In this document: piece after piece, positions 8,347-31,261 of the stretch
Numbering within the stretch: position 1 is the first letter of the stretch
How the letters are laid out: each line of letters begins with the position of its first letter
Source of the DNA: Nitrospirota bacterium
GTDB taxonomy: Bacteria > Nitrospirota > JACRHL01
Assembly: GCA_016212085.1 (NCBI GenBank)
Contig: JACRHL010000016.1
Location: 1-64,000 of the forward strand
DNA: 64,000 nt
Reading direction: 5' to 3'
The notes under the pieces: generated by a model
Database searches by the model: none
Told to the model about the DNA's origin: nothing
What the model saw: the letters and a program-made list of their open reading frames with translations, nothing else
Made by a program: the position numbers and the translations under genes

Positions 8347-8375
8347 AATATAGCGGGCTTGGCCGATTGTGTCAA
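8347..8375 (-). promoter_or_regulatory. Sigma-70 promoter of yqeY-dnaG-rpoD
   Basis: On the minus strand: -35 TTGACA (8370-8375), exact 17-bp spacer, -10 TATATT (8347-8352). This is a near-consensus promoter, giving a leader of about 75 nt before the yqeY ATG. It lies in the 239-bp space after the upstream phosphatase gene (8503), so the operon has its own start. Confidence 0.88.
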
Positions 8376-8502: not shown

Positions 8503-8997
8503 CTACCCGGCGGGGTTTTCGGGCAGGTTCAGGGCGTCCAGCACCCGTTTGACGCGGTGCCGGCCCAGGTAGCAGTGCAGGTAGCGCAGCGATACCGGGT
8601 TGGCGCGGATGTGCCCGGCGGTGCGCGCTTCCCAGCCGCCATCACCGGCCAGCAGCGCGCCGACCGGCACCGGAATGTTCACGAAACGCATGCCGAGGCG
8701 CTCCACCAGGTTCCGCTCCCGGACCACCAGCTCCCCCTCCACCGGCGATGCGGCGTCGAGCAGGCTGAGCACCTCCACCACGCCCATGCGCTTCAGGCGC
8801 AGCAACTCCGCCTCCACCGGATAGGGGCCGACGATCAGGTCCGGGGCCGGTCGGGCCACCGGCCCCCGCGCGAAATTCATGGGAAAGCGGTCCGGCGTGA
8901 ACAGCACGAACACGCCGTAACCGAAGGCCGCGAGACACAGGGCCGTGACCACCAGGATGGTGCGGCTGCGCGGCCGGTTTTCGGCGACGGCGGTCAT
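8503..8997 (-). CDS. Membrane-anchored dual-specificity/tyrosine phosphatase-like protein
   Basis: 164 residues. An N-terminal membrane helix (about residues 13-33, ILVVTALCLAAFGYGVFVLF) is followed by a compact domain with the motif LHCYLGRHR. That is a CX5R active-site loop preceded by His, as in cysteine-based phosphatases. The general-acid Asp is not obvious, and the loop has only one glycine, so activity may be altered. It starts directly on the stop codon of the barrel gene (TAG-ATG), so it is the last gene of the long operon that starts at 25237. It may tune polysaccharide export or dephosphorylate an envelope component; substrate unknown. Confidence 0.65.
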   Translation of the reverse strand: MTAVAENRPRSRTILVVTALCLAAFGYGVFVLFTPDRFPMNFARGPVARPAPDLIVGPYPVEAELLRLKRMGVVEVLSLLDAASPVEGELVVRERNLVERLGMRFVNIPVPVGALLAGDGGWEARTAGHIRANPVSLRYLHCYLGRHRVKRVLDALNLPENPAG

Positions 8998-11900
8998 CTA
9001 GAAACGCCACTCCAAGGTGCCCGCCACACGCACGTCCCGCTCGGCGAAGGCGGGCGCGACGCCGTACCGGGCGTCCAGGGCCGCGCTCAGGTGGCGGCCG
9101 GCGGCGCGCGCCACCCGGCCCCGCACCAGGTGCCGGCCGTAATGATCGCTGGCGGGATCCTCGTCCCAGCGCACCCCCCACTCGTAGCGTAGCAGGTACT
9201 CCCAACAAGGGCGGTCCCGGTCGGCCAGCTCCAGGAACAGGGTGGGCCCGGCGCCAGTGACCGTGTCGTAGGCGTAGGCGTCCTTCAGGAAATTCACGGC
9301 ATCGAAGCGGATGCCGAACGCCAGCGGCGCCAGCGCCGGGTGGGCGTAGGCCGCCTCGGCGGCGAACGCCAGCTCCCGGTTGGCGGGGGACACGCGGGCC
9401 AACGGCGGATCGCCCGGATTGGCGCCGAGTTGGGTAAAGGTGTTGGCGGCATAGGCGCGCACCAGGCCGGACACCTCGAAGCGGAACGGGAACGGCCGGG
9501 CCCAGCGGTCGGCAACGCGCAGCTCGCGGGTGGGCACGAACACCAGGGCCAGGTCGGCGCCGCCCTCGTCCAGGAAGCGGCCGAGCCGGTGGTCCAGGGC
9601 GGCACGGGCCGTCAGGTGGTGGTCCCCGGCGCGCTTCTCCGCCTCCAGCGCCAGGTCGGCGATGGTGTGGCCATCGCTGTAGTCGCTCACGGCGGCGCTG
9701 CCGCGCAGCCACAGGTCCGGCGCGACCTGCGCGCCGCGTTCACCGCCCAGGCGCCGCTCGCGGAACAGGCGGAACGCCTGCTGGGTGGCAAGGCCGCGCC
9801 CCAGGAACGGCCCCTGGGCCAGGCTCAGGTGCGATTCCCGGTTCCACGCCACCCGGTCCCACGCCAGGCGCGCGCGGCCGAAGTCCCGATCGGCGATGGA
9901 GTTGGCGTCGTTGGGCCGGTAGCGGGTGGCGCCCAGCGCCAGGCTGACCGTGTGCCGGTCGCCCAGGTGGCGGGTGGCCGCCACCCAGCCGGTGAGGGCG
10001 TCGAAGTCGTACACGGGCACGCCGGTCACCCGGTTCACCAGGGAACTGTCGGCGAAATCCACCCAGGTGGCCAGGGTGAGGGCGCGGCTCACCCGGTCGC
10101 GGGCGCCCAGGTGCCAGCCCAGCGTGCGGTAGCGCACCGGGGCGGGGGTGACGATGCGGTCGGAGCGGCCATCCAGGTCGTGGCTGACGGCGTAGGAGAA
10201 GGTGGCGTCCAGCACCGGCCTGCGCTGCTCCCGCGCGGCGATCCAGCCGCCGCACGGGGCGCAGTCCCCCGGCCGCTCCCGGTGCAGGTCGCGGAAGCGC
10301 GCCTCCGCATCGGCGAAGTCCATGTCGCGCAGGGTCAGCCGGGCCAGGGCGAGACGGCCGTCGAAATGGCCGGGGTCGTCCGCCAGCAGCCGCGCCAGCC
10401 AATGGCGGGCACCCCAGGCCGATGTGTCCCCCATTGCCGGCGCGGCCCGGGCCGCGCCCGGCGCGCTGCCCGTGTCCGCGCCCGCCGCAACCTCGGCCAC
10501 GGCGCCGGGTTCCGCCGGGATGGGCGGCACGGCACCCGGCGCCCGGGGCAGAACCAGCACCTGGCCCGGATGGATGCGATCCGGATCGGTGATATGCGGG
10601 TTGGCCGCCAGGATGGCGCGCCAGCGGTCGGTGGCGCCCAGCTCGCGCAGGGCGATCAGGCTGAGCGACTCCCCGGCCAGCACCGTGTGGGTGGCCGGCG
10701 CCGGGGCGGATTTTTCATCTGTTTTCAACGGCAGCTCGCCGCTTTCCGGCGCTTCGGACGCCACCACGGGCGCGGCCGGTGCGGCGACCGCCGGCACCCA
10801 CAGGGTCTGCCCGGGGGCGATGCGATTCGGATCGGCCATGTCCGGGTTGGCGCGGCGCACCAGCGGCCACAGGGTGGCGTCGCCCAGGTAGGTGCCGGCG
10901 ATGGTGCCCAGGGTATCCCCGGGCGCCACCACGTGCCGCACCCGCGACGCGCCAGACCCCGCCAGCACCGGCGGGATGGGGACGCGCAGCAGCTGGCCCA
11001 CGGTCAGGCGGTGCGGGTTGTCCAGCTCCGGGTTGGCGTTGCGGACATAGGCCCACAGGGCCGGGTCGCCCAGGTAGCGGCTGGCGACGGTGCCCAGGGT
11101 GTCGCCCGGAGCCACCGCGTGGCGGACCACCCGCACCGGCGCGGTGAGCCAGCGCGGGGCGTCCGCCGCCGTGGGCCGCGCGTCCGCTCGTGGCACCGCG
11201 GGCGTCTCCGCCATGGCGGCTGCGGTCGGCGCGTCCACCGGCGGCGCGGCGGCGGGTTCCGTTGCGGCCGGAGCCACGTCCCCGGCCGGCTCGGCGACGG
11301 GCAGGGCCCGGCCGGTGCCCAGGTTGTCCCGGTCCATCTCCACGTAGGCGCGGGCGAGCAGGGCCTCGGGGTGGTCCGCCACCCGTTCCAGCACCCGTTC
11401 GAACTGGCTTGCGGCCAGGTCGCGCTCGTGCAGCGCCCGGTACACCACCCCCAGCCGCAGGGCCAGGTCGGTGTGCTCCGGAAAGCGCTCCAGATTCGAC
11501 CGGTACAGCCGTGCCGCATCGCCCAGGTAGCCCATGCGCTCGTAGGCGCGGCCCAGGGCCAGCACCAGTCCGGCATCGTCCGGGTGGCGGCTCAGCAGTT
11601 CGTTGAGGTGGGTGGCCTCGCGCCGGTACCACATGAGCGCCTCGGCCGCCTCGGCCTTGCGGCGCAGCGCCTCGTCCCCGGCAAAGGCCCGGTCGGCCCA
11701 ATGATAGGCCGCGCGCGGCTTGTGCTGGCGCAGGTAGGCGGTGAACAACAGCGCGCGCGCCTCGGCGTCGTCGGGCCTGGCGGCCAGCAGGCGCGTCAGG
11801 TCCGCCTCGGCGCGGGCGGGCAGGCCCTGGGCCAGGGCCACGCGGGCGTCGCCCAGCAGCCCGTCGGCGTGGTCCGGGACCATGCGCAGCAGGCGCTGGA

Positions 11901-12123
11901 AGGCCTCGCCCGCCCCGTCCGGGTCACCGTTCCAGCGCAGCACCGTGCCCAGCCAGAACAGGGCGTCCGGCTGGTCGCCCGCCGCCCGGTAGAGGGCGAT
12001 GGCGGCCGGATAGTCCGCGGCCTGCCGCGCCTGGTGGGCCGGTTCCAGATCCAGCGGCCATGCCGCTCCCGGCGCAAGCAGGGACAGCAGCGCCGCCACG
12101 GACAGGGCGCGCAACCACCTCAT
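8998..12123 (-). CDS. TPR / triple LysM / outer-membrane beta-barrel protein, probable polysaccharide export
   Basis: 1041 residues. A signal peptide (MRWLRALSVAALLSLLAPGAAW) leads into about 300 residues of TPR-like helical repeats. Three LysM domains follow near 331-380, 395-443 and 477-525; each has the APGDTLGTVA- or AGESLSLIA-type start and a PGQ(L/T/V) end. After a further TPR-like stretch comes a roughly 400-residue, aromatic-rich beta-strand domain ending in TLEWRF, a terminal Phe typical of outer-membrane barrels. TPR plus barrel is the plan of BcsC, PgaA and YaiO/NfrA-type exporters. The LysM insert suggests peptidoglycan or glycan binding in the periplasm. Its ATG overlaps the stop of the GT2 synthase gene (ATGA), implying coupled translation and a joint function. 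Confidence 0.82.
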   Translation of the reverse strand: MRWLRALSVAALLSLLAPGAAWPLDLEPAHQARQAADYPAAIALYRAAGDQPDALFWLGTVLRWNGDPDGAGEAFQRLLRMVPDHADGLLGDARVALAQGLPARAEADLTRLLAARPDDAEARALLFTAYLRQHKPRAAYHWADRAFAGDEALRRKAEAAEALMWYRREATHLNELLSRHPDDAGLVLALGRAYERMGYLGDAARLYRSNLERFPEHTDLALRLGVVYRALHERDLAASQFERVLERVADHPEALLARAYVEMDRDNLGTGRALPVAEPAGDVAPAATEPAAAPPVDAPTAAAMAETPAVPRADARPTAADAPRWLTAPVRVVRHAVAPGDTLGTVASRYLGDPALWAYVRNANPELDNPHRLTVGQLLRVPIPPVLAGSGASRVRHVVAPGDTLGTIAGTYLGDATLWPLVRRANPDMADPNRIAPGQTLWVPAVAAPAAPVVASEAPESGELPLKTDEKSAPAPATHTVLAGESLSLIALRELGATDRWRAILAANPHITDPDRIHPGQVLVLPRAPGAVPPIPAEPGAVAEVAAGADTGSAPGAARAAPAMGDTSAWGARHWLARLLADDPGHFDGRLALARLTLRDMDFADAEARFRDLHRERPGDCAPCGGWIAAREQRRPVLDATFSYAVSHDLDGRSDRIVTPAPVRYRTLGWHLGARDRVSRALTLATWVDFADSSLVNRVTGVPVYDFDALTGWVAATRHLGDRHTVSLALGATRYRPNDANSIADRDFGRARLAWDRVAWNRESHLSLAQGPFLGRGLATQQAFRLFRERRLGGERGAQVAPDLWLRGSAAVSDYSDGHTIADLALEAEKRAGDHHLTARAALDHRLGRFLDEGGADLALVFVPTRELRVADRWARPFPFRFEVSGLVRAYAANTFTQLGANPGDPPLARVSPANRELAFAAEAAYAHPALAPLAFGIRFDAVNFLKDAYAYDTVTGAGPTLFLELADRDRPCWEYLLRYEWGVRWDEDPASDHYGRHLVRGRVARAAGRHLSAALDARYGVAPAFAERDVRVAGTLEWRF

Positions 12124-13562
12124 GACACCTCCCCCGTGCGCGCCGGCGCATCGAATCCGCGCTTGTGCACCGTGTCCCACTGGCGCCGGGCCGACAGGAA
12201 CTGGAACAGGCCGCGCACCCGCCAGATCACGTTGAGTTGCCGGTAACCGAAGTTCTCCAGCACCGCCATGGCCATCAGCACGGCCAGATCCTGCCAACGG
12301 TTGTAGGAGCGTGCCGACATCTCCTCGAGCAGCACCGAACCCACCGACAACAATACCCCCAGCAGCAGCGACAGGACCAGGTACAGCACCAGGAACTGCA
12401 CCGACAGGATCCCCATCAAGGCGCACGCCGCCACCACCCCGTAGCCGACCAGTTCCACCAGGGGGCCCCACAGCTCCACCCACTGGAACGGCATGCCGAA
12501 CAGCCCCACGGCGCCGTGGCGGGGGTTCAGGGTGAGGAAGGCGTGGCGGATCAGCGTCTCGCCCAGCCCCTGGTGCCAGCGGCGCCGCTGGCGGCCCAGT
12601 TGCGCCAGGGTGGTGGGCGCCTCGGTCCAGCAGATGGGATCGGCGATGAAGGTCACCCGGTAGCGTTTGCCGCCGCGCCGCATGTGGTGGTGCAGGCGCA
12701 CCACCAGCTCCATGTCCTCCGCCACGGTGCGGGTGCTGTAGCCGCCCAGCTCCAGCACCGGGTGCTTGCGGAACAGGGAGAACGCGCCGGACAGGATCAA
12801 CAGCGAGCCGAAATTGCTCCAGCCGGCGCGCCCGAACAGGAAGCAGCGCAGGTACTCCACCACCTGCAACCTGGACAGCAGGTCCTTGGGCAGGCGCACG
12901 TCGGCGATGCGGCCGTCCTCCACCGTGGAGCCGTTGCCGATGCGCACGATGCCGCCGGTGGCCACCACCTCGTCCGGGTCGGCCATGATCGGCCCCATCA
13001 GGCGCAACAGGGCGTCGCGCTCCAGGATCGAGTCGGCGTCCACGGAGCAGAAGTAGGGGCAGCGTGACAGGTTGATGCCCACGTTCAGCGAGTCGGCCTT
13101 GCCGGAATTGGCCTTGGTGACCACCGTGAGCCCCGGCAGCTGCGGGTTGACGAAAAAGCGCCGCACCGGCTCGGTGGGGATGTGGGCCCGGTAGATGAGG
13201 TCGACCTCGGTGAGCGCGAAGGCGTCGATCAGGCGGGCCAGGGAGTCGTCGGTGGAGCCGTCGTCCACCACGATCACCTCGTGGCTGGGATAGTTCAGGG
13301 ACAGCAACGCGGAGACGCCCTGCACAAGGTTCGCCGCCTCGTTGAAGGCGGGCACGATGACCGTGACCGGCGGCGCGGTGGGCAGCGCGGACAGGTCCTC
13401 GAAGCTGTCCGTCCCGTGGCCACGGCGGTGGCGCACGGCGCCCACGCCGGCCGCGAACAGCAGCGCGAAGTAGACACCGTTCACCACGACGTAATACACC
13501 AGGATGAACAGGTTCACCCACGGCAGCGCGGCCGCGAACCAGATTTGCAGTTGTTGCGCCAT
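12120..13562 (-). CDS. Processive family-2 glycosyltransferase (polysaccharide synthase)
   Basis: 480 residues. An N-terminal membrane segment is followed by a GT-A domain with VVDDGST (about 96-102), VDADS (about 173), the catalytic-base region TVAEDMEL (about 281) and QRRRW (about 325), the D,D,D,QxxRW set of processive synthases such as PgaC/IcaA, BcsA and YaiP. At least three C-terminal membrane helices follow (GVVAACALMGIL, FLVLYLVLSLLLGVLLSVG and others). There is no PilZ domain, so c-di-GMP control, if any, must act through a partner. It would polymerise a sugar nucleotide and pass the chain through the inner membrane to the barrel protein encoded next. The polymer cannot be predicted. 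Confidence 0.9.
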   Translation of the reverse strand: MAQQLQIWFAAALPWVNLFILVYYVVVNGVYFALLFAAGVGAVRHRRGHGTDSFEDLSALPTAPPVTVIVPAFNEAANLVQGVSALLSLNYPSHEVIVVDDGSTDDSLARLIDAFALTEVDLIYRAHIPTEPVRRFFVNPQLPGLTVVTKANSGKADSLNVGINLSRCPYFCSVDADSILERDALLRLMGPIMADPDEVVATGGIVRIGNGSTVEDGRIADVRLPKDLLSRLQVVEYLRCFLFGRAGWSNFGSLLILSGAFSLFRKHPVLELGGYSTRTVAEDMELVVRLHHHMRRGGKRYRVTFIADPICWTEAPTTLAQLGRQRRRWHQGLGETLIRHAFLTLNPRHGAVGLFGMPFQWVELWGPLVELVGYGVVAACALMGILSVQFLVLYLVLSLLLGVLLSVGSVLLEEMSARSYNRWQDLAVLMAMAVLENFGYRQLNVIWRVRGLFQFLSARRQWDTVHKRGFDAPARTGEVS

Positions 13563-13589
13563 GTCCCCCTACATCCCGTCGGCTCCCCT

Positions 13590-14951
13590 CTATGCCACCT
13601 CGGTATCCGGCGCCCGTTCCTTGAGGGCATGGGCGGCGTCGTGGCGCACCAGCATGTCCGGGTCGTTCGCCGCCGCGCGCGCCAGGGCGGCGTCGATGCG
13701 GGGGTTGGGCAGGGGCGCGACCACGCGTACCAGCACCCGCCGCACGTGGGCGCTGCCGTGCCCGGCCAGGGCCGCCAGCATCACGCTCACCGCGCCGCCC
13801 TTGGCCACGGCGGTCAACAGGGCCGCCTCCGGCGCGGTGGGCACGTCCTCCAGCGCCAGGCGCTGCAACCGGTCGATGGTGTCCCGCAGCAACGGCGTGC
13901 GTTGCAGCTCCTCGACCACCTGCTCGCGGGCGAACCGGTCGGGGCTGGCGAGCACCGTCTCGGTGAGGGCCGCCAGGGCCGCGCCGCCGGAGGCCGCCAG
14001 GGAATGGGCGGCCTCCTGGCGCACCCGCCAGTGGCCGTCGGTGAGGCAGCGGGCGAGGGCCGCGATGGCGGCGGGGTCGGCCAACCGCCCCAGGGCCCGC
14101 GCCGTGTGCATGCGCACCAGCCACGATGGGTCCTCAAGCCGTCCCAGCAGCGGGAACAGGGCGCCGCGCGCCGCCAGCTTGCCCAGGGCCTGGGCGGCCT
14201 TGGCGCGCACGTCCGGCTCCGCGTCGGCCAGGCACGCGATCATGGCGCCCGTGTGGTGGGCGGCCACCACCTCGCCCAGCACGAACAGGGCCGCGCCGCG
14301 CACCCGCCACACCGGATGGGACAGCAGCGGCACCACCCGTTCCCCCGCCTCCGGGCCGAACCGGGCCAGGTTGCCGGAAATCACCCGCACCGACAGCCGG
14401 TCGGCGCCGCCGTGCACCCGCGCCAGCACGTCCGCCAGAACCTGGATGGCCGCGTCGTCGCCCAGGCGCCCCAGGGCGCGCACGGCGGCGGTGCGCACCG
14501 CCGGGTCCGGGTCCTCGGTGGCGTGCAGCAGGTCGTCCAGCGCCTCCGCGCAGCGGTAATCCGCCAGGCGGGCGGCGGCGCGGGCGCGCTCCCAGCCGCC
14601 CCCGTGACGCAGCTGGTGACGGCAGCGCTCGGCGAGGCCGGACGCCGCCGCGAACCGCGTCAGCCGCGCCGCCGCGTCCGGCTCCGCGGCCTGGATGGCC
14701 GCGCGGACCAGCTCGTCCAGCGCCTCCCAGCCGACGCCGTCCGTCCGCAGCTTCAGGTCGGGGCGTTCCGGGCGCGCCGTGCCGGCGGCCACGTGCGCGA
14801 CCAGCCCCCGGTAGACCCGCTCCACCCGGCGCCGGGCGCGCCGCCGGAAATCGCCCGCCAGGCGCCTCCCCGTCAGCGTGGCGACGAACAGCACCAGCGC
14901 CACGGCCAGCGTGCCGATCGCCCAGGTCACGATGAGGTAGGCGTTATACAT
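13590..14951 (-). CDS. Membrane-anchored HEAT-repeat protein
   Basis: 453 residues. One N-terminal transmembrane helix (about 5-28, LIVTWAIGTLAVALVLFVA) and then at least eight HEAT/PBS-lyase-type repeats, for example DPDPAVRTAAVRALGRLGD, HPVWRVRGAALFVLGEV, EPDVRAKAAQALGKLA and DPSWLVRMHTARALGRLAD. The repeats most likely form a cytoplasmic protein-binding scaffold. It lies 27 bp after cheB and 27 bp before the GT2 synthase gene. HEAT proteins recur beside GT2/YaiO-type loci in other bacteria (from memory), so it may bridge the Wsp output and the synthase. No enzymatic motif is seen. Confidence 0.8.
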   Translation of the reverse strand: MYNAYLIVTWAIGTLAVALVLFVATLTGRRLAGDFRRRARRRVERVYRGLVAHVAAGTARPERPDLKLRTDGVGWEALDELVRAAIQAAEPDAAARLTRFAAASGLAERCRHQLRHGGGWERARAAARLADYRCAEALDDLLHATEDPDPAVRTAAVRALGRLGDDAAIQVLADVLARVHGGADRLSVRVISGNLARFGPEAGERVVPLLSHPVWRVRGAALFVLGEVVAAHHTGAMIACLADAEPDVRAKAAQALGKLAARGALFPLLGRLEDPSWLVRMHTARALGRLADPAAIAALARCLTDGHWRVRQEAAHSLAASGGAALAALTETVLASPDRFAREQVVEELQRTPLLRDTIDRLQRLALEDVPTAPEAALLTAVAKGGAVSVMLAALAGHGSAHVRRVLVRVVAPLPNPRIDAALARAAANDPDMLVRHDAAHALKERAPDTEVA

Positions 14952-14978
14952 GGCGATGGGCGGCGCCGGCGGCCGGGG

Positions 14979-16064
14979 TCAGCCCCCGGAGTGGCCCAAC
15001 TCCTCGCTCACCGCCCGCGCGATGCGTTGCAGGGGCAGCACGCGCGCCGCGGCGCCGATGTGCACCGCGTGACCGGGCATGCCATACACGGTGGCGCTCG
15101 CCTCGTCCTGGACCAGGGTGGGCGCGCCGGCCTGGCGCAGGGCCAGCAGCCCTTCGGCGCCATCCTTGCCCATGCCGGTGAGGAGCACGCCGATGGCGGC
15201 CCCGCCCAGGGCCCGCGCCGCGCCGTGGAACAGCACGTCCACCGCCGGGCGCATCCCGTGCATCGGGGCATCCTGGGTGAGCACCACCCTGCCGCCGCGC
15301 ACGGTCATATGGTGATCGTTGGGGGCCAGCAGGAACTGCCCGGCGGCTTCCGCCAGGGGCTCGCCGTGGCGGGCCAGACGCACCGGCTTGCCCGTCTCGC
15401 GGGCCAGCCAGTCGGCCATGGCGTCGGCGAGCCGCTCGCCGACGTGAATGACGATCAGGGTGGGAATGGGCAACGGCTGGGGCAGCTGCTTGAGCAGCGC
15501 CACCACCGCCTGCGGCCCGCCGGTGGAGGCGCCGACGAGCAGCGCCCTGGGGCTCTCCGGACGCGGCGCGGCGACCGGCTCCGGCACCGGACAGGCCATC
15601 GCCGCGAGGCCGGCCGGCGCCCCGACGGGCGTCCGCCGCCGCCCCCCGCCCACGGCACGGATGTTGGCGATCAGCGTATCGTTCCAGGAACGGTCTCCGT
15701 CACCCCCCTTCTTGAGCACGGTGACCACCTCGCCCGGCCGGCCGTCGAATTCCGCCAGGGCGTCGTCATAGGCGGACACGATGATCACGCGGGAGGGAAC
15801 CCCACCCTGAACCATGCGGCGCAACGCGGCGCGGCCGTCCAGCCCGGGCATCCGCAGGTCCAGGACCACCACGTCGGGCACCAGCGCCGCCACCCGCTGG
15901 GCCGCGTTGTAGCCGTTGCCGGCCTCGCCCACCACCTGCATGTCGGGTTGCGTGCCGATCAGTTCGCGCAGGAAGGTCCGGTAGGCGAAGCTGTCGTCCG
16001 CCACGAACACGCGGATGGGGCGCAGCCCGTCGGGTGCCTTGGGCATGGTGCCGGAGCGGGTCAT
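14979..16064 (-). CDS. cheB: CheB-type methylesterase response regulator (WspF-like)
   Basis: 361 residues. The receiver domain has VFVADDS, phosphoacceptor Asp in VVVLDLRMPG and a Lys in LKKGG. A linker leads to the methylesterase domain with catalytic Ser in VGASTGGP, His in VIHVGE (the usual QHM is IHV here) and Asp in LLTGMGKDG. It removes methyl groups from MCP glutamates and so adapts the pathway. The ATG at 16062-16064 overlaps the stop of the GGDEF gene (ATGA). A longer reading from TTG 16100 is less likely. In Pseudomonas wsp, WspF has this place in the system and its loss locks the pathway on. Confidence 0.95.
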   Translation of the reverse strand: MTRSGTMPKAPDGLRPIRVFVADDSFAYRTFLRELIGTQPDMQVVGEAGNGYNAAQRVAALVPDVVVLDLRMPGLDGRAALRRMVQGGVPSRVIIVSAYDDALAEFDGRPGEVVTVLKKGGDGDRSWNDTLIANIRAVGGGRRRTPVGAPAGLAAMACPVPEPVAAPRPESPRALLVGASTGGPQAVVALLKQLPQPLPIPTLIVIHVGERLADAMADWLARETGKPVRLARHGEPLAEAAGQFLLAPNDHHMTVRGGRVVLTQDAPMHGMRPAVDVLFHGAARALGGAAIGVLLTGMGKDGAEGLLALRQAGAPTLVQDEASATVYGMPGHAVHIGAAARVLPLQRIARAVSEELGHSGG

Positions 16065-17077: not shown

Positions 17078-19451
17078 TACCTATCAGCCTGGCGACGGTT
17101 TGCAACAGGGAGACCTGGTTCAGTTCGCCCTTCACCAGGTAGGCGTCCGCGCCCACGTCCAGACCCCGCTTGCGGTCCACCTCGGACCCCAGGGAGGAGA
17201 GGATCACCACCGGCAGGTGTTGGCTGGCGCCCTGGCCACGGAGATGGCGGACCAGCTCCAGCCCGGTCATGTGGGGCATCTCCACGTCGCTCAGCACCAG
17301 GTCGATGCCCCCCTGGGCGATCTTTTCGAGGGCCTCGGCGCCGTCGCTCGCCAGCACCACCCGGTAGCCGCCCGCATCGAGCATCCCCTTTTCCATCATG
17401 CGCGCGCTCAGGCTGTCGTCCACCACCAGCACGGTGAGGGCGGGGGCCTGCTCCGGCCCGCGCCGAGCCGCCTGTGCCGGCGCCACGGCGCCCCCACGGG
17501 GCGCGCGCGGCTCGCCGCCGCCCAGCCGCGACGACTCCATGAACAGGTGTTCCACGTCCAGCACCACCGCCGGGCGGCCGCTGGACAGCATGGTGATCCC
17601 GGATACCCATGGCAGCGTGCCGACGTGCTCCACGAGCGGCTTCACGATCATGGTGCGCACGCCGACCACCCGGTCGACACCCAATGCCACCTGGTCACCG
17701 GCCCAGTGCAGGATGACCGCGTCGGCCGCCGGCTCGTCCATGTCGGCGCCCAGCAGCCGCTGCATGGAGACATAGGGCAGCGAACGCCCCTCGACCTGGA
17801 TGACCGGCTGCTGCGCGCAGATCCCGCGGTCGACCTGCTGGAGGTGGCGGATCTGCACCACCGCCTCCAGCGGCACCCCGTAGGTGCGGTGCCCGCACAC
17901 GAACAGGAACCCGTCCAGGGTGGACAGGTTGACCGGAAAGCGCAGGTGCACCGTGGTGCCCCGCCCCGGGGCGCTGGCGAACTCCACGTTCCCCTTCAGG
18001 CCCTTGAGCGCGGCGGCCACCACATCCAGGCCCACGCCGCGGCCGGAGACCTCGGTCACCCGTTCGGCGGTGGACAGGCCCGGGCGCATCATATAACGGA
18101 ACAGCTCCGACGGCCGCATCGACTCGGCCTCGGCCGGTTCCAGCATGCCCAGCGCCACCGCCTTGTCGCGCACCCGCTCCAGGTCGATGCCGCGGCCGTC
18201 GTCGGCCACCGAGACGTGCAGCATGGCGCCGTGGCGCAGGAACGACAGGCGGATGGTGCCGGTGGCGGGCTTGCCGGCGCGGGCGCGTTCCTCCGGCGAT
18301 TCCAGGCCGTGATCGACGGCGTTGCGCAGCAGGTGCGCCAACGGCTCCTTGATGCCCTCGAGCAGCGCCTTGTCGATCTCGATATGCTCGCCCTCCACCT
18401 CGAGCCGGGTGGGGCGCCCCAGGTGCAGCCCCGTCTCGCGCACCACCAGGTGCAGGGCGGTGCTCAGGGTGGACGCGGGCAGCATGCGCAGGTCCATCAC
18501 CCCCTCGTGCAGGGTCGACACCAGGTTGTCGAGCTGGGCCGCATGCGCCTTGGCATCCGCCAGCAGGCCCTTGAACCCCTCCTGCAGGGCCACGGTGCGG
18601 GTGCGCTGAAGGATGGTGGCGAGGGCCTCGCCCTGGGCGGTGCCGTGCAGCAGGTGGCGCACCTCCTTCGACTGGAACCAGGCGCGGACGTCGTTGACCG
18701 CACGGATGCTGCGGAGGATGTCGTTCGCCAGCCCCTGGACGCGGGCGTTGTGATCCGCCAGGCGGATCTTGCTGATCACCAGCTCGCCGGTGAGGTTGGC
18801 CAGGTGGTCGATCTTGACCAGGTCCACCCGCAGCATGCCCTTGTCGCCCGCCGGGCGGGGCGCCGGGCGCGGCTCCGGCGCGGCCACGGCCGCCTCGGGT
18901 TCGGGGCGCGGCGGCCCGGCCGGAACGGTGGGGGCGAGGGCGGCAGGCGCGGGGGTGGGCGCGGGGGCGAGCGCAGGGGCGGGGGTGGGCGCGGCGGGAA
19001 CCGCGGGCGCCACGGGGCCATCGCCCTTCACCGGCGGCGCGGCGCGCCGCGCCGCCGCCTCGGGAGCACCGGCGCGGGCGGTTTCCAGCGCCCCCTGCAA
19101 GCGGTTGATCACGGGCGCGGTGTCGGGGGCGGGAACGGCGGCATCGTCCAGCACCGACAGCATCTGCTCGATGACGTGGACCGCCTCGAGCATGGCGGTG
19201 ATGACCGTTTCGCCGGTGGCGGTGCCCCCCTCGCGCAGGACGCCCAGCACGTCCTCCATCTTGTGTGCCACCGCGCCCACGTCGTTCAGCGCCACCATGC
19301 GCGCGGAGCCCTTCAGGGTGTGGGCGAGACGGAACAGGGTCTTGAGCGTCTCCCGGTCGCCGGGTTCGCATTCCAGGTGCAACAGCCCGGCGTTCAGGCC
19401 CTCCAGGTGCTCCTGGGCCTCGATGCGGAAGTATTTGATGGCGTCCTTCAT
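17064..19451 (-). CDS. cheA: Hybrid chemotaxis-type histidine kinase, CheA-REC (WspE-like)
   Basis: 795 residues. An Hpt domain has its phospho-His near residue 44 (LAHTLKGSARM). A long Ala/Pro linker (about 140-215) follows, then a dimerisation helix region and the HATPase with LLRNAVDHGLE, DDGRGID and SGRGVGLDVV. A CheW-like P5 domain comes next, and then a C-terminal receiver (about 670-790) with VVDDS and LSDVEMP. A terminal receiver is the hallmark of WspE-type kinases rather than flagellar CheA. It should phosphorylate the WspR-like and CheB-like proteins encoded immediately downstream, with its own receiver acting as sink or brake. Confidence 0.95.
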   Translation of the reverse strand: MKDAIKYFRIEAQEHLEGLNAGLLHLECEPGDRETLKTLFRLAHTLKGSARMVALNDVGAVAHKMEDVLGVLREGGTATGETVITAMLEAVHVIEQMLSVLDDAAVPAPDTAPVINRLQGALETARAGAPEAAARRAAPPVKGDGPVAPAVPAAPTPAPALAPAPTPAPAALAPTVPAGPPRPEPEAAVAAPEPRPAPRPAGDKGMLRVDLVKIDHLANLTGELVISKIRLADHNARVQGLANDILRSIRAVNDVRAWFQSKEVRHLLHGTAQGEALATILQRTRTVALQEGFKGLLADAKAHAAQLDNLVSTLHEGVMDLRMLPASTLSTALHLVVRETGLHLGRPTRLEVEGEHIEIDKALLEGIKEPLAHLLRNAVDHGLESPEERARAGKPATGTIRLSFLRHGAMLHVSVADDGRGIDLERVRDKAVALGMLEPAEAESMRPSELFRYMMRPGLSTAERVTEVSGRGVGLDVVAAALKGLKGNVEFASAPGRGTTVHLRFPVNLSTLDGFLFVCGHRTYGVPLEAVVQIRHLQQVDRGICAQQPVIQVEGRSLPYVSMQRLLGADMDEPAADAVILHWAGDQVALGVDRVVGVRTMIVKPLVEHVGTLPWVSGITMLSSGRPAVVLDVEHLFMESSRLGGGEPRAPRGGAVAPAQAARRGPEQAPALTVLVVDDSLSARMMEKGMLDAGGYRVVLASDGAEALEKIAQGGIDLVLSDVEMPHMTGLELVRHLRGQGASQHLPVVILSSLGSEVDRKRGLDVGADAYLVKGELNQVSLLQTVARLIGNANG

Positions 19452-19468
19452 GGCTCGGCCGGCCCCGC

Positions 19469-21364
19469 CTATCTGCCCACCAGGCGCGACAGGCTCTGGG
19501 CGGTGCGTTGCAGCTCCTCGGCGGTGCCGAGGCTCTGGGCGGTGCGCTCCGACACCCGGCCGGCGGTGTCCGCCGCCTCCTTGGCGAAGCGGTCCACGTC
19601 GCCAATGGCGTGCTCCTGGGCCTGGGTGGCCAGGAAGATGCTGCCCGCCACGTCGGACACCTGGCTGACCGCGCCCACGATGATGTCGAGGCGCTCGGTC
19701 ACCACATTCATGAGATTTTCGCCCTCGCTCACCGCGCGGGTGCCGCGTTCGGTGGCCTTCCTGGTTTCCTCCGTGGTCTCCTGCACCTTCTTGATCATGG
19801 CGCGGATCTCCTGGGTGGCCTCCTGGGCGCGGGTGGCCAGGCGCCGCACGTGCTTGGCCACCATGGCGAAGCGGGTGCCGGACTTGCCGGCGCCGGCGGC
19901 CTCGATGGTGGCGTTGAAGGAGAGCAGCTTGGTCTGGTCCACCAGCTCGTCGAGGATGGCCAGAATGCCGTCCATCTGCTTGGTCTGGAGCTTGGTTTCC
20001 TCCATGGCGTGGGAGATTTCCATGGTGTGGGTGAGGATGGCGCCCATGCGCTCCTGGGAGTTGGAAAGCACCTCCATGCCCTGCACGCACTCCAGGCTCG
20101 CCGAGTCGGTCTGCTGGGCCATGACCTCGGTCTGCGCGCGGATCTGCGACAGGGCGCCGCGGAACTCGGTGAGGGTGCGGTGCACGCCGCCGATGACCTC
20201 CACCTGGCTGCCGGCCTCCCGGGCGTGCTGCTCGGTCTCCCGGCGCAACTGCTCCGACAGCTCGTTGAGCTGCACGCTGGCCTCGCCGATCTGGCGGGTG
20301 AAGACGCCCACGCAGCGGTAGATCCAAAGCCCCAGGCCACCGCCGATCAGGGCGATGATCAAGGCGCCGATCAGCGCGCCCTGCTTCAGCAGCTGGCTGT
20401 ACCGCATGGACTCGTTGGAGATCTGGGTGATCTCCTGGCCGGTGCTGTCGGACAGGGTGTACAGCGCCCACTTGAGCGATTCCAGGGTGGGGTTGATCTG
20501 GGTCTGGTAATAGTCGAAGTCGCGCCGCCAGCCGGTGCTGTCGCGCTCGGCGAAGCCACGCTCGAACACCTCGAGCAGGTGGGTGCGGGAGGCGTCCAGC
20601 ACGTGGAAGAACGCCGCCGCGCCGTCGTCGCCCTCGCGCAGGCGCTGCTCGATGATGCTGTAGATCGTCTCGTTGCGCTTGAGCTCCTTGAGGTAGCTCT
20701 CGCGGAACGCCGGCTCGCGCATGAACAGATAGCCGCGCACGCCGCTCATCATGCGGTTCAGGCTGTCCTGATAGCCCATCAGGGCGGACAGGAACAACAC
20801 GTCCAGCTCGCGGTCGCGGGACATGCGCACCTCGACGATCAGGTCGAGGAACAGGTTCGTGCGCGTCAGCAGTTTTTCGCCACGGGTGTTGATCAGGTGG
20901 GCGGACGGCACGTTGTCCGGCTGCTCCCTGAGCTCGAACACCTCCTGGGCCTGGATCTCGAGCTTCTGCACCAGGTCGCGCACGCCGTTGATGTGCGCCG
21001 CCACGTCGGCGCCGTGGCGGAAGCCCGCGCTGACATCCTCCGAGGCCAGCATGGCCAGGGTGAGGTGCACCGTCTCCACCGCGTCGTTGAAGCGTTCCCG
21101 CTCCACCTCGTCGCCGGTCAACAGATAGGCCTCCAGGCCGCTGCCGGCCTCGAGCACCGTTTTCACCAGCGTCGTCACCCGGTTCGCGGTGGGCACCAGG
21201 TCCTCCGACACGTGCGCGGCCATGCGCGCGTTCTTGTCGAGCCCGCTCACCAGCGGCACGGCGGCCAGCAGCAGCAGCGCGCCCATCACCACCACGGCGG
21301 CGATGATGCGGCCGCTCTGGCCGAGCTGAAATGCGGAAAAGAGCTGTCCGGGGCGCAGTTTCAC
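19469..21364 (-). CDS. Methyl-accepting chemotaxis-type receptor 2
   Basis: 631 residues from GTG at 21362-21364, with a purine-rich ribosome binding site about 6 nt upstream. TM1 lies at about 20-42 and TM2 at about 330-352; between them is a roughly 285-residue all-helical periplasmic domain with two four-helix-bundle-like halves, carrying the membrane-proximal ELREQP and YYQTQINPT segments. The cytoplasmic signalling helix has a hairpin tip around [20 protein letters not shown] instead of the usual EAARAGE. The heptad class and methylation sites were not resolved by eye. It follows the first MCP by only 3 bp, so the two may form mixed receptor arrays. Confidence 0.93.
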   Translation of the reverse strand: MKLRPGQLFSAFQLGQSGRIIAAVVVMGALLLLAAVPLVSGLDKNARMAAHVSEDLVPTANRVTTLVKTVLEAGSGLEAYLLTGDEVERERFNDAVETVHLTLAMLASEDVSAGFRHGADVAAHINGVRDLVQKLEIQAQEVFELREQPDNVPSAHLINTRGEKLLTRTNLFLDLIVEVRMSRDRELDVLFLSALMGYQDSLNRMMSGVRGYLFMREPAFRESYLKELKRNETIYSIIEQRLREGDDGAAAFFHVLDASRTHLLEVFERGFAERDSTGWRRDFDYYQTQINPTLESLKWALYTLSDSTGQEITQISNESMRYSQLLKQGALIGALIIALIGGGLGLWIYRCVGVFTRQIGEASVQLNELSEQLRRETEQHAREAGSQVEVIGGVHRTLTEFRGALSQIRAQTEVMAQQTDSASLECVQGMEVLSNSQERMGAILTHTMEISHAMEETKLQTKQMDGILAILDELVDQTKLLSFNATIEAAGAGKSGTRFAMVAKHVRRLATRAQEATQEIRAMIKKVQETTEETRKATERGTRAVSEGENLMNVVTERLDIIVGAVSQVSDVAGSIFLATQAQEHAIGDVDRFAKEAADTAGRVSERTAQSLGTAEELQRTAQSLSRLVGR

Positions 21365-21367
21365 GGC

Positions 21368-22888
21368 CTATCCCTTCCCGTTGGACACGCCCGCCAGGCC
21401 CTGGAGTTCGCTGGCGGTCCATGCCAGCGATTCGACCGTGGACAGGGTGTTGGTGGAGTGGCGCTCCGTTTCCGATGAAATGGTGGTCAGGGACTCCACC
21501 GCCTCGCTCACCTGGACCACCGCGTTGCCCTGCTCGCGGGCGGTGGCCTCGATGGTCTGCACCGCGTCCACGGTCTGGGTCACCAGGGTGAGCAGGGCGT
21601 TGAAGTTCTCCGCCACCCGGGCGGCATCTTCCAGGCCGCGGTCCACCGCCTGCTCGCCCTCCAGGGTCACCGCGTTGGTCACCCGCGCGGTCTCCTGGAT
21701 GTCCTCGATGAGCGTGCGGATCTCCTCCGTCGACTCCACCGCGCGCTCCGCCAGCAGGCGGATCTCCTCGGCCACCACGGCGAAGCGGCGCCCCGCCTCG
21801 CCCGCGCCCGCCGCCTCGATGGTGGCGTTGATGGACAGCAGGTTGGTCTGCGAGGCCATCTCGTTGATGATCTCGAGCACGCTGTTGATCTGGTGGGTCT
21901 TCTCCTCGAGGCTGCGCATGTGCTCGGTGATGCGCTCCACCTCCACCTTGATCTGGCCGATGCCCTGCTGCGACTTGCTCAGGAACGCATGGCCCTTGCG
22001 GCACTCGTCGGCGGCGGCCTTCGAGGTCTGCACCATGTCGCGGCTGCGCTCGGTGAGGTTCTTGTACGAGGCCAGCAACTCCTGCATGGTGGTGGAGATC
22101 TGGATCGCCGCCGAGGCCTGCTCCATGGCGCTCTTGACCTGGTACTGGGCGGCCTCGGTCAGCTGCACGGTGGAATCGGAGATGCGCGTGATGGGCCGCG
22201 ACAGGCCGCTCATCACCCGGCGCACCACGAACGCGGCGAGCAGCATCCACAGCAACAGGCCGGCGGCCCCGAGCGTGGCGTTGCGAAGCACCAGGCCGTG
22301 CACGGTGTCGCGCCCCTCGCGCGAGCGCGCCTCCATCAGCGCGTCAGCGCGTTTTTCCAGGTCGGCCAGCGCCACGTCGAGGGACTGCTGCGCCGCCACC
22401 AGGCGCGCGCGCTCCTCGGCGCCGGCCTGCTCCGCTCCCGCCTTGAGGTAGACCCCCATCATGTCCTGTAACTGGTCATACTGCTCGCGCAGGGAGGCGA
22501 TCTCCACCGGATCCACCAGGCCCGCCTCCTGCACGCGGGCCACCTGGGCGCGCACGTCGGCGCTGGCCTCGCGCAACACCCGCTGGGAGGCGAAGGAATC
22601 GCCCACCATCGCCAGGTCCATCGCCCAGTTGCCCTTGAGGCTGCCCATGTTGATTTCCATGACGCCGTCCGCGTGGCTCCAGGCCGTGTCCAGCCGGTCG
22701 AAAACGGCGTCGGCCTGGCGGATGCCGTACCAGCCCGACACCGCGGTCATCAGAAAGCCGGCGGCCATCACGGCGGCGCCCGCCACCACCAGACGATAGA
22801 GGGGCCCGCGCAACGACGCGGCACCGGCGGTCGGTTTCTTGGGAGCGGTGGCATCGGTCATTGGTGTTACCCTGTTGTTTGATTCCAT
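21368..22888 (-). CDS. Methyl-accepting chemotaxis-type receptor 1 (WspA-like)
   Basis: 506 residues with a Shine-Dalgarno AGGAG 8 nt before the ATG. TM1 is at about 34-55 ([20 protein letters not shown]) and TM2 at about 205-225 ([18 protein letters not shown]). The 150-residue periplasmic domain between them is a predicted four-helix bundle, the size found in WspA. After a short HAMP-like segment ([13 protein letters not shown]) comes the signalling domain with the tip [20 protein letters not shown] and [15 protein letters not shown]. In Pseudomonas, WspA senses surface contact or envelope stress; the same is likely but unproven here. Confidence 0.93.
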
Positions 22889-22899
22889 GGATTTGGCTC

Positions 22900-23448
22900 C
22901 TAGCCCCTCGCGTCCAGCTGCGTGAACAGCTGATCCAGGTCGAGAAACAGCAGCAGCCCCCCTTCGTGGTAGGTGGTGCCGCGGACGATCTGACGTATGG
23001 CTCCGGGAACGGTGCGGGGCACCGCGCCGACCCGCTCCGGGTCGACGGCGATCAGCCGGCCGATGTCGGACACCACGATGCCCACGTTGAACGCCTCGCC
23101 CTTCAACACCACGATGTTGGAGGTGGGCTGGCGGTCACCGCCATAACCGAACATGCGCGGCAGGTCGTACACGGCGATCAATTCGCCACGCAGGCTGCTG
23201 AGGCCGAGCAGGTGCGGGGGGGACCCGGGCAGCGGCATCACGTCGACGCCGCGGACCAGGCGCTTGACGTGGGTGATCGGCAGGGCGAGGCGCTCCGTCG
23301 CCAGCGTCACCGTCAGGTACAGCGGCAGGTCGCTGTGCTCCTCGTCGGCACCCTTCGCGAAGCTGGCGTCGAAATCCTCCTGCAGCAGCCGAATCCGTTC
23401 GTCCAGTCCCTGTGCGCTCACCCCTGCTCTCCCCGCTGTAGCCGTCAT
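22900..23448 (-). CDS. cheW: CheW-type adaptor (WspD-like)
   Basis: 182 residues. A 45-residue N-terminal extension precedes a CheW domain: [19 protein letters not shown], then [20 protein letters not shown] (the usual LRGxIxPVxDL), then [19 protein letters not shown]. CheW couples receptors to CheA. The start ATG (23446-23448) overlaps the cheR stop (ATGA). The longer open frame upstream overlaps cheR and is not coding. It is the second of two CheW genes in the operon; with cheR between them the order W-R-W matches wspB-wspC-wspD. Confidence 0.93.
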
Positions 23449-24833
23449 GCGCCGCTCCGCGCCATGCATGCCTGGCGGAACGCCGCCACGTCGAAGCCGC
23501 CGAAGAATCGGTAAATCCGTTGCGCGTCCCGCTCCGCCGCCACCTCCGCATTGCGCCACGACAGGCGCGCCGGCCCGTGCCACCCCTGCGCCCATTGCAG
23601 TTCGGCCAGGTGATAGTGGGCGACCGCGAACGAAGGGTCCAGGAACAGGGCCCGCTTGAAGGCCGTAAGCGCCGCCGGGCAGTCGTTCATGGCCTGGTCG
23701 ATCATGCCGCCGATGAAATGCGGCTCCGGGCACCGCGCCGCGTCGGCCTGGTGCGCGGCCAACTGGCGGCGGGCCGCCGTCAACTGGCGCCGGCGGTAAT
23801 GGATCCAGGCCAGCAGGCAGGCGGCTTCACCGCCCTTGGCATGGCCCCGAAGCAGGGCCTCGGCCCGCCCGAATTCCTCGCGCACCACCAGCTCCCACGC
23901 GGCGGACAACGGGTCCGTCCTGGGTGCCTGGGGGATGGCGGGCCGGGCCGTGGCATGGCCGCGGGGATAGCTTTCCCCGGCCTCCGCCAGCGGCTTCCGA
24001 AAACAAAACGTATCGCCGATGGTGGCAACCGCCAGGCCCGGCGGCGGCGCCATCACCTCCGAGTACCCCATGACCAGGTATCCCCCGGGGCGCAGCGCGG
24101 CGGACATGGCGCCGACCAGCCGCTGGGTGGTGGCCGCGCTGAAATAGATGACCACCTTCTGGCACAGGATCAGGTCGAACTCGGGCACGATCCGGGCCGC
24201 CTCCGCCCATGCGATCAGGTTGTCGGACTCGAACCCCACGTGGCGCCGGTAACGGTCGCGCACGCGCCACTTTCCCGGCCCGGCGGGCTCCAGCAGCGCG
24301 TCGCGCTCCGCATCCGACATGCCGCGCAGGGCATAGTCCGTGTAAATCCCCTCCCGCGCGAACGCGACGGCGCGCCGGTTCAGGTCGGTCCCGGCGATGC
24401 GCGCCGGCACGCCGGCACGGTCCACCAGGGCGGCCAGGCTGTAGGCCTCCTCGCCGGTGGCGCAGCCGGCGGACCACAGTTGCAACGGTCTGCCGCCGGC
24501 GCGCTCAAGCAGGCTGGGCAGCACGTGCCGCTCCAGCGCCTCCCAGCGCGCGCGGTCGCGGAAAAAATGGGTCTCGCCGATGGTCACCACCGCCATGTAA
24601 CGCTGCCACTCGTCCGCGTCGTCCAGCAGGGTGTCGAGATAGCGCATGGGATCGGTCACGCCACGGGTCACCAGGCGCTCCGCGTAGAGCCCGCGCAGCG
24701 CCTTGGTGCGGCTGGCGCGCCCGTCGATGCCCGTGTGGGCCGCGATCATGGCCAGCAGGCGATCGAACGCCGCGGTCGCGGGGACCGCGGGCGCGCCGCC
24801 GCCGGCCGAGGTCAGGCCGCCTGGCGCGCGCAT
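23445..24833 (-). CDS. cheR: CheR-type receptor methyltransferase with TPR tail (WspC-like)
   Basis: 462 residues. An N-terminal helical CheR domain is followed by the SAM-binding fold with ETHFFRD, WSAGCATGEEAYS, TDLNRRAV and the LILCQKVVIYF segment (normally FCRNVLIYF). After about residue 285 a linker leads to a TPR-like C-terminal half, for example AALTAFKRALFLDPSFAVAHYHLAELQ. TPR-tailed CheR is typical of WspC. It methylates MCP glutamates, opposing CheB. The ATG at 24831-24833 overlaps the end of the first cheW by 22 bp; an upstream extension to 24971 overlaps cheW and lacks CheR similarity. Confidence 0.95.
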   Translation of the reverse strand: MRAPGGLTSAGGGAPAVPATAAFDRLLAMIAAHTGIDGRASRTKALRGLYAERLVTRGVTDPMRYLDTLLDDADEWQRYMAVVTIGETHFFRDRARWEALERHVLPSLLERAGGRPLQLWSAGCATGEEAYSLAALVDRAGVPARIAGTDLNRRAVAFAREGIYTDYALRGMSDAERDALLEPAGPGKWRVRDRYRRHVGFESDNLIAWAEAARIVPEFDLILCQKVVIYFSAATTQRLVGAMSAALRPGGYLVMGYSEVMAPPPGLAVATIGDTFCFRKPLAEAGESYPRGHATARPAIPQAPRTDPLSAAWELVVREEFGRAEALLRGHAKGGEAACLLAWIHYRRRQLTAARRQLAAHQADAARCPEPHFIGGMIDQAMNDCPAALTAFKRALFLDPSFAVAHYHLAELQWAQGWHGPARLSWRNAEVAAERDAQRIYRFFGGFDVAAFRQACMARSGA

Positions 24834-25237
24834 AACAGATCCGGGGTCAGCAGGTGCACCAGGGTGCCTTGCAGATCCAGCGCGCCCAGGGCGGCCGGAC
24901 CGTTGGCGGGAATCACCTGGCTCGGGTCGTAATCGACGATGTCCTCCACGGAGTCGACGCGCCAATGGCACTCACCGTCCCCGTCGCGGCTGACCACCAG
25001 CCAGGAACGGGTGCCCTCGGTTTCCGCCGGCGCGCCGCCCTGTTCCTTGAGCAGGGTGGCCAGGTCGAACAGCCGGACGGGCCTGCCGTGCATGCGGATC
25101 ATGCCCAGCAGCCACGGGGGCCCGTCGGGGATGCGCTCCACCAGCGGCATCCGGCCCACCTCCTTGAGGTGCAGGATGTCCATCGCGTAGCGGTTCCGCC
25201 CCACCGTGAAAACCAGTGCCTGTTGTGAATGGTCCAA
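24812..25237 (-). CDS. cheW: CheW-type adaptor, first gene of the Wsp-like operon (WspB-like)
   Basis: 141 residues. The CheW fold reads ALVFTVGRNRYAMDILHLKEV, LLGMIRMHGRPVRLFDLATLL (the LRGxxVPVxDL element) and a C-terminal LVHLLTPDLLC. The start is set at TTG 25235-25237 because a perfect GGAGG lies 6 nt upstream (25244-25248) and the product then has a normal CheW length. The frame stays open further upstream, but that part runs through the promoter region of the divergent ybeZ gene. An AT-rich palindrome (25251-25268) sits just before the ribosome binding site and may control the whole operon. Confidence 0.88.
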   Translation of the reverse strand: MDHSQQALVFTVGRNRYAMDILHLKEVGRMPLVERIPDGPPWLLGMIRMHGRPVRLFDLATLLKEQGGAPAETEGTRSWLVVSRDGDGECHWRVDSVEDIVDYDPSQVIPANGPAALGALDLQGTLVHLLTPDLLCARQAA

Positions 25238-31094: not shown

Positions 31095-31261
31095 GCCAGT
31101 CTCCTCCCCGTTCAAGAAAAGCCCCGCGCCCCGCTGTCTAAAAAAATCCCCGGCCCGTCGGATGCGCCAAAACGGGCGTGGTAACATAACCCGAGAATCG
31201 CGATCGGCACGCGGCTATTCCCGCCGCGCGCGGTCCAAGCCGCCCGTCACCACCCGGAACC

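What the first reader, a model, noticed from the sequence alone, without database searches (positions are those of the whole stretch)
8503..25237. A complete Wsp-type c-di-GMP pathway fused in one operon with a polysaccharide machine
Twelve minus-strand genes have gaps of at most about 27 bp or overlap: cheW, cheR-TPR, cheW, MCP, MCP, cheA-REC, REC-GGDEF, cheB, HEAT protein, GT2 synthase, TPR/LysM/barrel protein, phosphatase. Seen: order, overlaps, domain motifs (GGEEF with RxxD, CheA C-terminal receiver, TPR on CheR). Established: WspA-F/R in Pseudomonas controls WspR and c-di-GMP-dependent exopolysaccharide encoded elsewhere. Inferred: here sensor, second-messenger enzyme and effector are a single cassette, so c-di-GMP may act locally on this synthase. 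The GT2 has no PilZ domain, so the c-di-GMP receptor would be unusual.
Basis: partly seen in the sequence, partly recalled or inferred. Interest (0 to 1): 0.82.

Follow-up and report, generated by a model that had tools for sequence, protein, structure and literature searches.

The report
Wsp-like sensor operon with polysaccharide synthase
In one lineage of Nitrospirota bacteria, a chemotaxis-like sensor that makes the signal cyclic-di-GMP sits in a single tight gene cluster with a machine predicted to build and export a polysaccharide, and relatives without that machine carry a different, well-known polysaccharide operon elsewhere, so sensor and slime-making output look like swappable modules.

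Summary
Twelve minus-strand genes (8503-25237) overlap or lie at most 27 bp apart, with no same-strand terminator or promoter match at the cheB/HEAT junction and a strong promoter match only after the last gene. The signalling half is Wsp-like by composition (two CheW, CheR-TPR, CheA-REC, CheB, REC-GGEEF with I-site) but has an extra MCP, a different gene order, and a CheA that does not group with proteobacterial WspE. The effector half, HEAT / processive GT2 / TPR-LysM-barrel / membrane phosphatase, is not private to this operon. HEAT-GT2 pairs occur across bacteria and archaea, usually with a receiver protein just upstream, and one archaeal genome with receiver-HEAT-GT2 has no GGDEF match. 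In the window's family all four genomes keep the Wsp-like operon. Two carry the HEAT-GT2 block inside it. The other two lack it and carry complete pgaABCD elsewhere. This supports exopolysaccharide as the pathway's output. It does not show that c-di-GMP acts locally; receiver-HEAT contact is a live rival. New variant of a known kind.

The parts
24812..25237 (-). cheW1 (WspB/D-like coupling protein); TTG start assumed
   Evidence: 45% identical to the CheW at this place in G002; open frame
23445..24833 (-). cheR with C-terminal TPR (WspC-like)
   Evidence: Pfam CheR 138.6 bits plus TPR_11
22900..23448 (-). cheW2 (WspD/B-like)
   Evidence: 47% identical to G002 CheW2
21368..22888 (-). MCP1, chemoreceptor with two TM-like segments
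   Evidence: Pfam MCPsignal; TM-like segments at residues 29-48 and 199-217
19469..21364 (-). MCP2, second chemoreceptor with long CHASE3-like periplasmic part
   Evidence: Pfam MCPsignal and CHASE3
17064..19451 (-). cheA with C-terminal receiver (WspE-like)
   Evidence: Pfam Hpt, H-kinase_dim, HATPase, CheW, REC; Hpt His in HTLKG
16061..17077 (-). REC-GGDEF diguanylate cyclase (WspR-like), GGEEF with RxxD I-site
   Evidence: Pfam; matches WspR structure 3bre over residues 9-326, 162 bits; motif
14979..16064 (-). cheB methylesterase with receiver (WspF-like); absent at this place in G001
   Evidence: Pfam; comparison
13590..14951 (-). HEAT-repeat protein with one N-terminal TM helix, HEAT part predicted cytosolic
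   Evidence: Pfam HEAT_2 128 bits; TM at residues 2-29; TM-anchored in 38 of 41 homologues
12120..13562 (-). processive membrane GT2 synthase (D, DxD, ED, QRRRW)
   Evidence: Pfam GT2; invariant motifs across 13 relatives; PgaC model far below its cut-off
8998..12123 (-). exported TPR / 3 LysM / predicted outer-membrane barrel protein
   Evidence: Pfam TPR and LysM; long antiparallel strands but low-confidence model
8503..8997 (-). membrane-anchored phosphatase with HCYLGRHR (CX5R), DSP fold
   Evidence: invariant motif across phyla; AlphaFold pLDDT 84.8; Foldseek to DUF442 phosphatase, TpbA, laforin
8347..8375 (-). promoter-like TTGACA-17-TATATT for yqeY-dnaG-rpoD, marking the end of the cassette

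Best explanation
A Wsp-like chemosensory pathway whose output is an exopolysaccharide made by genes in the same operon. Two membrane receptors, coupled by two CheW proteins, control a CheA-REC kinase; CheR-TPR and CheB adapt the receptors (shown: domains and motifs; inferred: action). The kinase phosphorylates REC-GGEEF, which makes c-di-GMP and limits itself through the I-site (inferred by homology to WspR). That switches on a membrane complex of TM-anchored HEAT protein and processive GT2 (inferred). The polymer crosses the periplasm and outer membrane through the TPR/LysM/barrel protein, and the membrane phosphatase, probably facing the periplasm, modifies polymer or complex (inferred). The step from REC-GGEEF to HEAT-GT2 is unresolved: c-di-GMP at the HEAT/GT2 membrane interface, as in PgaC/PgaD, or direct receiver-HEAT contact. 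The synthase block is a module; relatives without it have pgaABCD elsewhere in the genome.
For: Tight spacing with no same-strand terminator or promoter match at the junction. The same cassette in G001, where contigs C243 and C394 share an exact 127-bp end overlap inside the REC-GGDEF gene. Wsp-like genes stand before yqeY-dnaG-rpoD in the family, with the synthase block in G000 and G001 and absent in G002 and G003. G002 and G003 carry complete pgaABCD above curated cut-offs; G000 and G001 have no PgaB or PgaC above them. The HEAT-GT2-barrel-phosphatase order recurs without Wsp genes in MAGs L159-L161, so it is a self-standing block. GT2 keeps the processive-synthase motifs.
Against: No transcript data. 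The polymer is unknown. The complementary pattern rests on four genomes and may be one or two events. No known c-di-GMP-binding domain was found in the block. None of the 80 closest GT2 loci shows CheA, CheW, MCP, CheR or CheB in the flanks held (G001's own contig is cut before its che genes). The genome has 15 GGDEF and 11 PilZ matches, so c-di-GMP from this enzyme may act elsewhere. In G002 and G003 the Wsp-like half survives without any linked synthase.
Confidence: 0.62

Rival explanations
1. The link to the synthase is by protein contact, not by c-di-GMP: the phosphorylated receiver part of REC-GGEEF docks on the cytosolic HEAT solenoid and gates GT2; c-di-GMP made at the same time serves other targets.
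For: A receiver protein lies upstream on the same strand in 32 of 48 GT2 loci with full flanks, against 3 of 48 downstream; in 21 a receiver is of single-domain size. An archaeal genome with receiver-HEAT-GT2 (L234/G396) has no GGDEF match; haloarchaeal L115 has response regulator-HEAT-GT2. In G001 REC-GGDEF is the direct neighbour of HEAT. Precedent: the Dif chemosensory receiver EpsW activates the EPS enzyme EpsZ, apparently by contact (PMC12802240).
Against: The closest blocks of the same four-gene order (L159-L161) show no receiver upstream within 6 kb. No interaction test was possible. GGEEF and I-site are intact, so the enzyme is built to make c-di-GMP.
Confidence: 0.27
2. Mere neighbourhood: the two halves share a transcript but not a regulatory logic; the diguanylate cyclase feeds the global pool and the synthase is controlled by other means.
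For: The Wsp-like half stands alone in G002 and G003 at the same locus; the synthase block stands alone in many phyla.
Against: The junction is kept in two genera whose proteins have diverged to about 50-65% identity; complementary presence of pgaABCD.
Confidence: 0.2
3. The cassette is an assembly artefact, or two operons with a hidden promoter in the 3' end of cheB.
For: Only consensus sigma-70 sites were scanned.
Against: The independent assembly G001 shows the signalling and synthase genes joined; the window genome is 99% complete with low contamination.
Confidence: 0.06

Closest known systems
Wsp system (WspA-F, WspR) of Pseudomonas and Burkholderiales
   Same: Same component types: MCP, two CheW, CheR-TPR, CheA-REC without a P2 match, CheB, single-REC GGEEF cyclase
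   Different: Extra MCP; order cheW-cheR-cheW-MCP-MCP-cheA-wspR-cheB; 27-36% identity to Cupriavidus proteins; CheA outside the proteobacterial WspE clade; synthase in the operon
pgaABCD / PNAG system
   Same: Processive GT2 plus TPR-barrel exporter; best-scoring curated model of the GT2 is PgaC_IcaA, far below cut-off; family relatives G002 and G003 carry true pgaABCD
   Different: No PgaB, no PgaD; HEAT protein, LysM repeats and phosphatase instead
Widespread HEAT-GT2 cassettes (annotated HEAT repeat protein / glycosyltransferase family 2, often with a YaiO-family barrel)
   Same: Same gene pair, same order, TM-anchored HEAT; barrel often adjacent
   Different: Others are mostly preceded by receivers, not a chemosensory operon; no name or functional study found in the held library
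Dif-EpsW-EpsZ of Myxococcus xanthus
   Same: Chemosensory pathway drives exopolysaccharide synthesis through a receiver (PMC12802240)
   Different: Wzx/Wzy pathway, single-domain receiver, no diguanylate cyclase step described
Halomonas chemosensory cluster 2
   Same: Wsp-like operon with altered order and a diguanylate cyclase (PMC5907407)
   Different: Cyclase has Hpt and two receivers; no linked synthase in the passages read

Membership tests
Wsp system | All component types present (MCP, 2 CheW, CheR, CheA, CheB, REC-GGDEF) | tested here: met
   an additional MCP is present
Wsp system | Conserved wspA-wspF gene order with at least 30% identity (criterion of PMC8552884) | tested here: not met
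Wsp system | CheA with C-terminal receiver and no P2; CheR with C-terminal TPR | tested here: met
   (no P2 family found)
Wsp system | WspR-type cyclase: one receiver, GGEEF, I-site | tested here: met
Wsp system | Common descent with proteobacterial Wsp | tested here: inconclusive
   CheA tree: separate long-branched clade, not nearer to WspE than to other Nitrospirota CheA-REC
Wsp system | Surface sensing and c-di-GMP output | not testable with these tools
   needs experiment
pgaABCD (PNAG) | PgaB, PgaC and PgaD above curated cut-offs | tested here: not met
   window GT2 scores 132 bits on PgaC against cut-off 422 and no PgaD model was hit; no PgaB above cut-off in G000
c-di-GMP-gated synthase with PilZ or MshEN domain (BcsA, NfrB) | PilZ or MshEN domain in synthase or partner | tested here: not met
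HEAT-GT2 cassette (unnamed) | TM-anchored HEAT gene directly 5' of a processive GT2 with invariant motifs | tested here: met
Dual-specificity phosphatase fold | CX5R signature and DSP fold | tested here: met
   activity not tested

The most novel reading that the evidence does not exclude
The membrane-anchored HEAT protein is a receptor, for a phosphorylated receiver domain and/or c-di-GMP at the HEAT/GT2 interface, that gates a processive polysaccharide synthase. This unnamed REC-HEAT-GT2 regulation would run across bacteria and archaea, and here the lone receiver has been replaced by a whole Wsp-like chemosensory pathway in the same operon.
Probability: 0.28. Interest if true: 0.78.

Novelty: new variant of a known kind. 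Interest (0 to 1): 0.58.

Why it matters
Which polysaccharide a chemosensory diguanylate cyclase acts on is hard to tell when synthase and sensor are unlinked, as in Pseudomonas. Here the pathway and a candidate target share an operon, and sister lineages carry pgaABCD instead, so the wiring can be tested by moving one operon. It also draws attention to HEAT-GT2 cassettes, present from Nitrospirota to archaea and apparently unstudied, whose usual partner is a receiver protein. Finally, Wsp-like systems are found outside the beta- and gammaproteobacteria to which a 2021 survey confined them.

Tried and rejected
Single-protein scan of named genomes with the HEAT protein found nothing; an alignment of GT2 proteins worked. 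The full-length CheA search over the family failed twice for technical reasons and was replaced by a CheB family search and a CheA fragment. Stalk clusters sfz/xag of iron oxidisers were considered and rejected: they pair a BcsB-like protein with a GT2 that has an EpsE-like N-terminal domain, no HEAT protein. PNAG identity was rejected by curated cut-offs. The barrel model was too poor to search by fold. The idea that missing cheB in G001 is an assembly gap was rejected: REC-GGDEF and HEAT are about 80 bp apart there on one contig. Other Nitrospirota CheA-REC clusters (L152-L154) showed no linked HEAT or GT2. No sign of recent foreign insertion in base composition.

Full report
What is there. 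The twelve genes at 8503-25237 are on the minus strand with junctions of -22, -4, 11, 3, 17, -14, -4, 27, 27, -4 and 0 bp. Upstream a PhoH-like gene is divergent; downstream lie yqeY, dnaG and rpoD behind a TTGACA-17-TATATT match. The simple scan shows no minus-strand terminator- or promoter-like site at the cheB/HEAT junction; one weak terminator-like match on that strand lies inside cheR, no more than chance gives. Third-position GC is similar over the two halves, so there is no sign of a recent foreign insertion.

Where it is. The window is the start of contig C11 of a 2.7-Mb genome, 99% complete. A same-family genome, G001, is deposited as a Nitrospira sp. MAG, so the lineage is taken as Nitrospirota. 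Only three other genomes of its family were returned.

Comparison inside the family. G001: contig C243 carries MCP1-MCP2-cheA-REC-GGDEF(start) and C394 carries REC-GGDEF(end)-HEAT-GT2-barrel-phosphatase-dnaG-rpoD. The two contigs share an exact 127-bp end overlap inside REC-GGDEF, so the fused cassette is there too, without cheB. G002: PhoH / cheW-cheW-MCP-MCP-cheA-REC-GGDEF-cheB / yqeY-dnaG-rpoD, with no cheR between the cheW genes and no HEAT, GT2, barrel or phosphatase. G003: the same from MCP2 on, cut by the contig end. Neither G002 nor G003 has this GT2 anywhere at E up to 1e-60. Both carry complete pgaABCD above curated cut-offs on other contigs; G000 and G001 do not. A CheA tree puts G001 outside (window,(G002,G003)) with support 91/91. 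If so, the fused state is older and was lost once, but one branch at that support is weak ground.

Is it Wsp? By parts, yes; by order, no; by descent, undecided. CheA is 32% identical to Cupriavidus WspE over its length, and the family's CheA proteins form their own long-branched clade. Kessler et al. (PMC8552884) found Wsp only in beta- and gammaproteobacteria, by gene order and identity. Wsp-like clusters with the same gene order also appear on plasmids of alphaproteobacteria (L111, L113), and Halomonas has a Wsp-like variant (PMC5907407). 'Wsp-like' is the safe term.

The effector block. Among the 80 closest GT2 loci in the named-genome collection, HEAT is adjacent in 64 by a single-sequence search, a lower bound. 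In 48 loci with 4 kb on both sides, a receiver is upstream on the same strand in 32 and downstream in 3. No CheA, CheW, MCP, CheR or CheB match occurs in any of the 80. Of the 66 Nitrospirota genomes with this GT2 I read 20 loci of other families around it: none has a Wsp-like operon; one has an MCP-like gene. An archaeal genome with receiver-HEAT-GT2 has no GGDEF match. The order HEAT-GT2-barrel-phosphatase stands without Wsp genes in L159-L161, where no receiver was seen upstream. HEAT has one N-terminal TM helix, as do 38 of 41 homologues. The phosphatase family has an invariant HCYLG[RK]HRV across several phyla; its model matches DUF442, laforin and TpbA phosphatases at fold level only.

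Mechanism. Shown: the parts, their spacing, conservation of the fusion in a second genus, and the complementary pga operons. Inferred: phosphorylation of REC-GGEEF by CheA, c-di-GMP synthesis, polymer synthesis and export. Not decided: how REC-GGEEF reaches HEAT-GT2. Pga teaches that c-di-GMP can bind at a GT2/partner interface without a known domain (PMC8461298). Dif-EpsW-EpsZ teaches that a chemosensory receiver can activate an EPS enzyme by contact (PMC12802240). The general company of HEAT-GT2 with receivers, also in an archaeon without GGDEF, is reason to take contact seriously.

Verdict. A real, conserved arrangement; a new variant of a known kind. Its interest lies in the change of effector under one sensor and in the unnamed HEAT-GT2 family, more than in 'complete Wsp'. 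Limits: four genomes, no expression data, polymer unknown, barrel model weak, literature search limited to open-licence papers.

Noticed in passing
L238 (G002:C17) and L239 (G003:C113): Complete pgaABCD operons above curated cut-offs in the two family members that lack the HEAT-GT2 block.
   Followed up: yes
L158-L237, L115-L120: HEAT-GT2 pair, mostly with an upstream receiver, recurs across bacterial phyla and in archaea; apparently unnamed.
   Followed up: partly
window 8503-8997; L158-L161, L176, L223, L074, L078-L081: Phosphatase family with invariant HCYLG[RK]HRV, no Pfam or NCBIfam match for the window member, recurrently beside HEAT-GT2.
   Followed up: partly
L111 (Novosphingobium plasmid), L113 (Hyphomicrobiales plasmid): Clusters in Wsp order (MCP, CheW, CheR, CheA-REC, CheB, REC-GGDEF) in alphaproteobacteria, outside the range given in the 2021 survey.
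   Followed up: partly
L094 (G002), L151/L029 (G001): cheR is missing from the operon in G002 and cheB in G001: each has lost one half of the adaptation pair.
   Followed up: no
window 33940-34317 +: Weak GGDEF match (23.8 bits, at cut-off) in a 388-aa frame, possibly a degenerate domain.
   Followed up: no
window 30102-31187 -: Methyltransferase-like frame with cysteine pairs at both ends, resembling an arsenite methyltransferase by eye.
   Followed up: no
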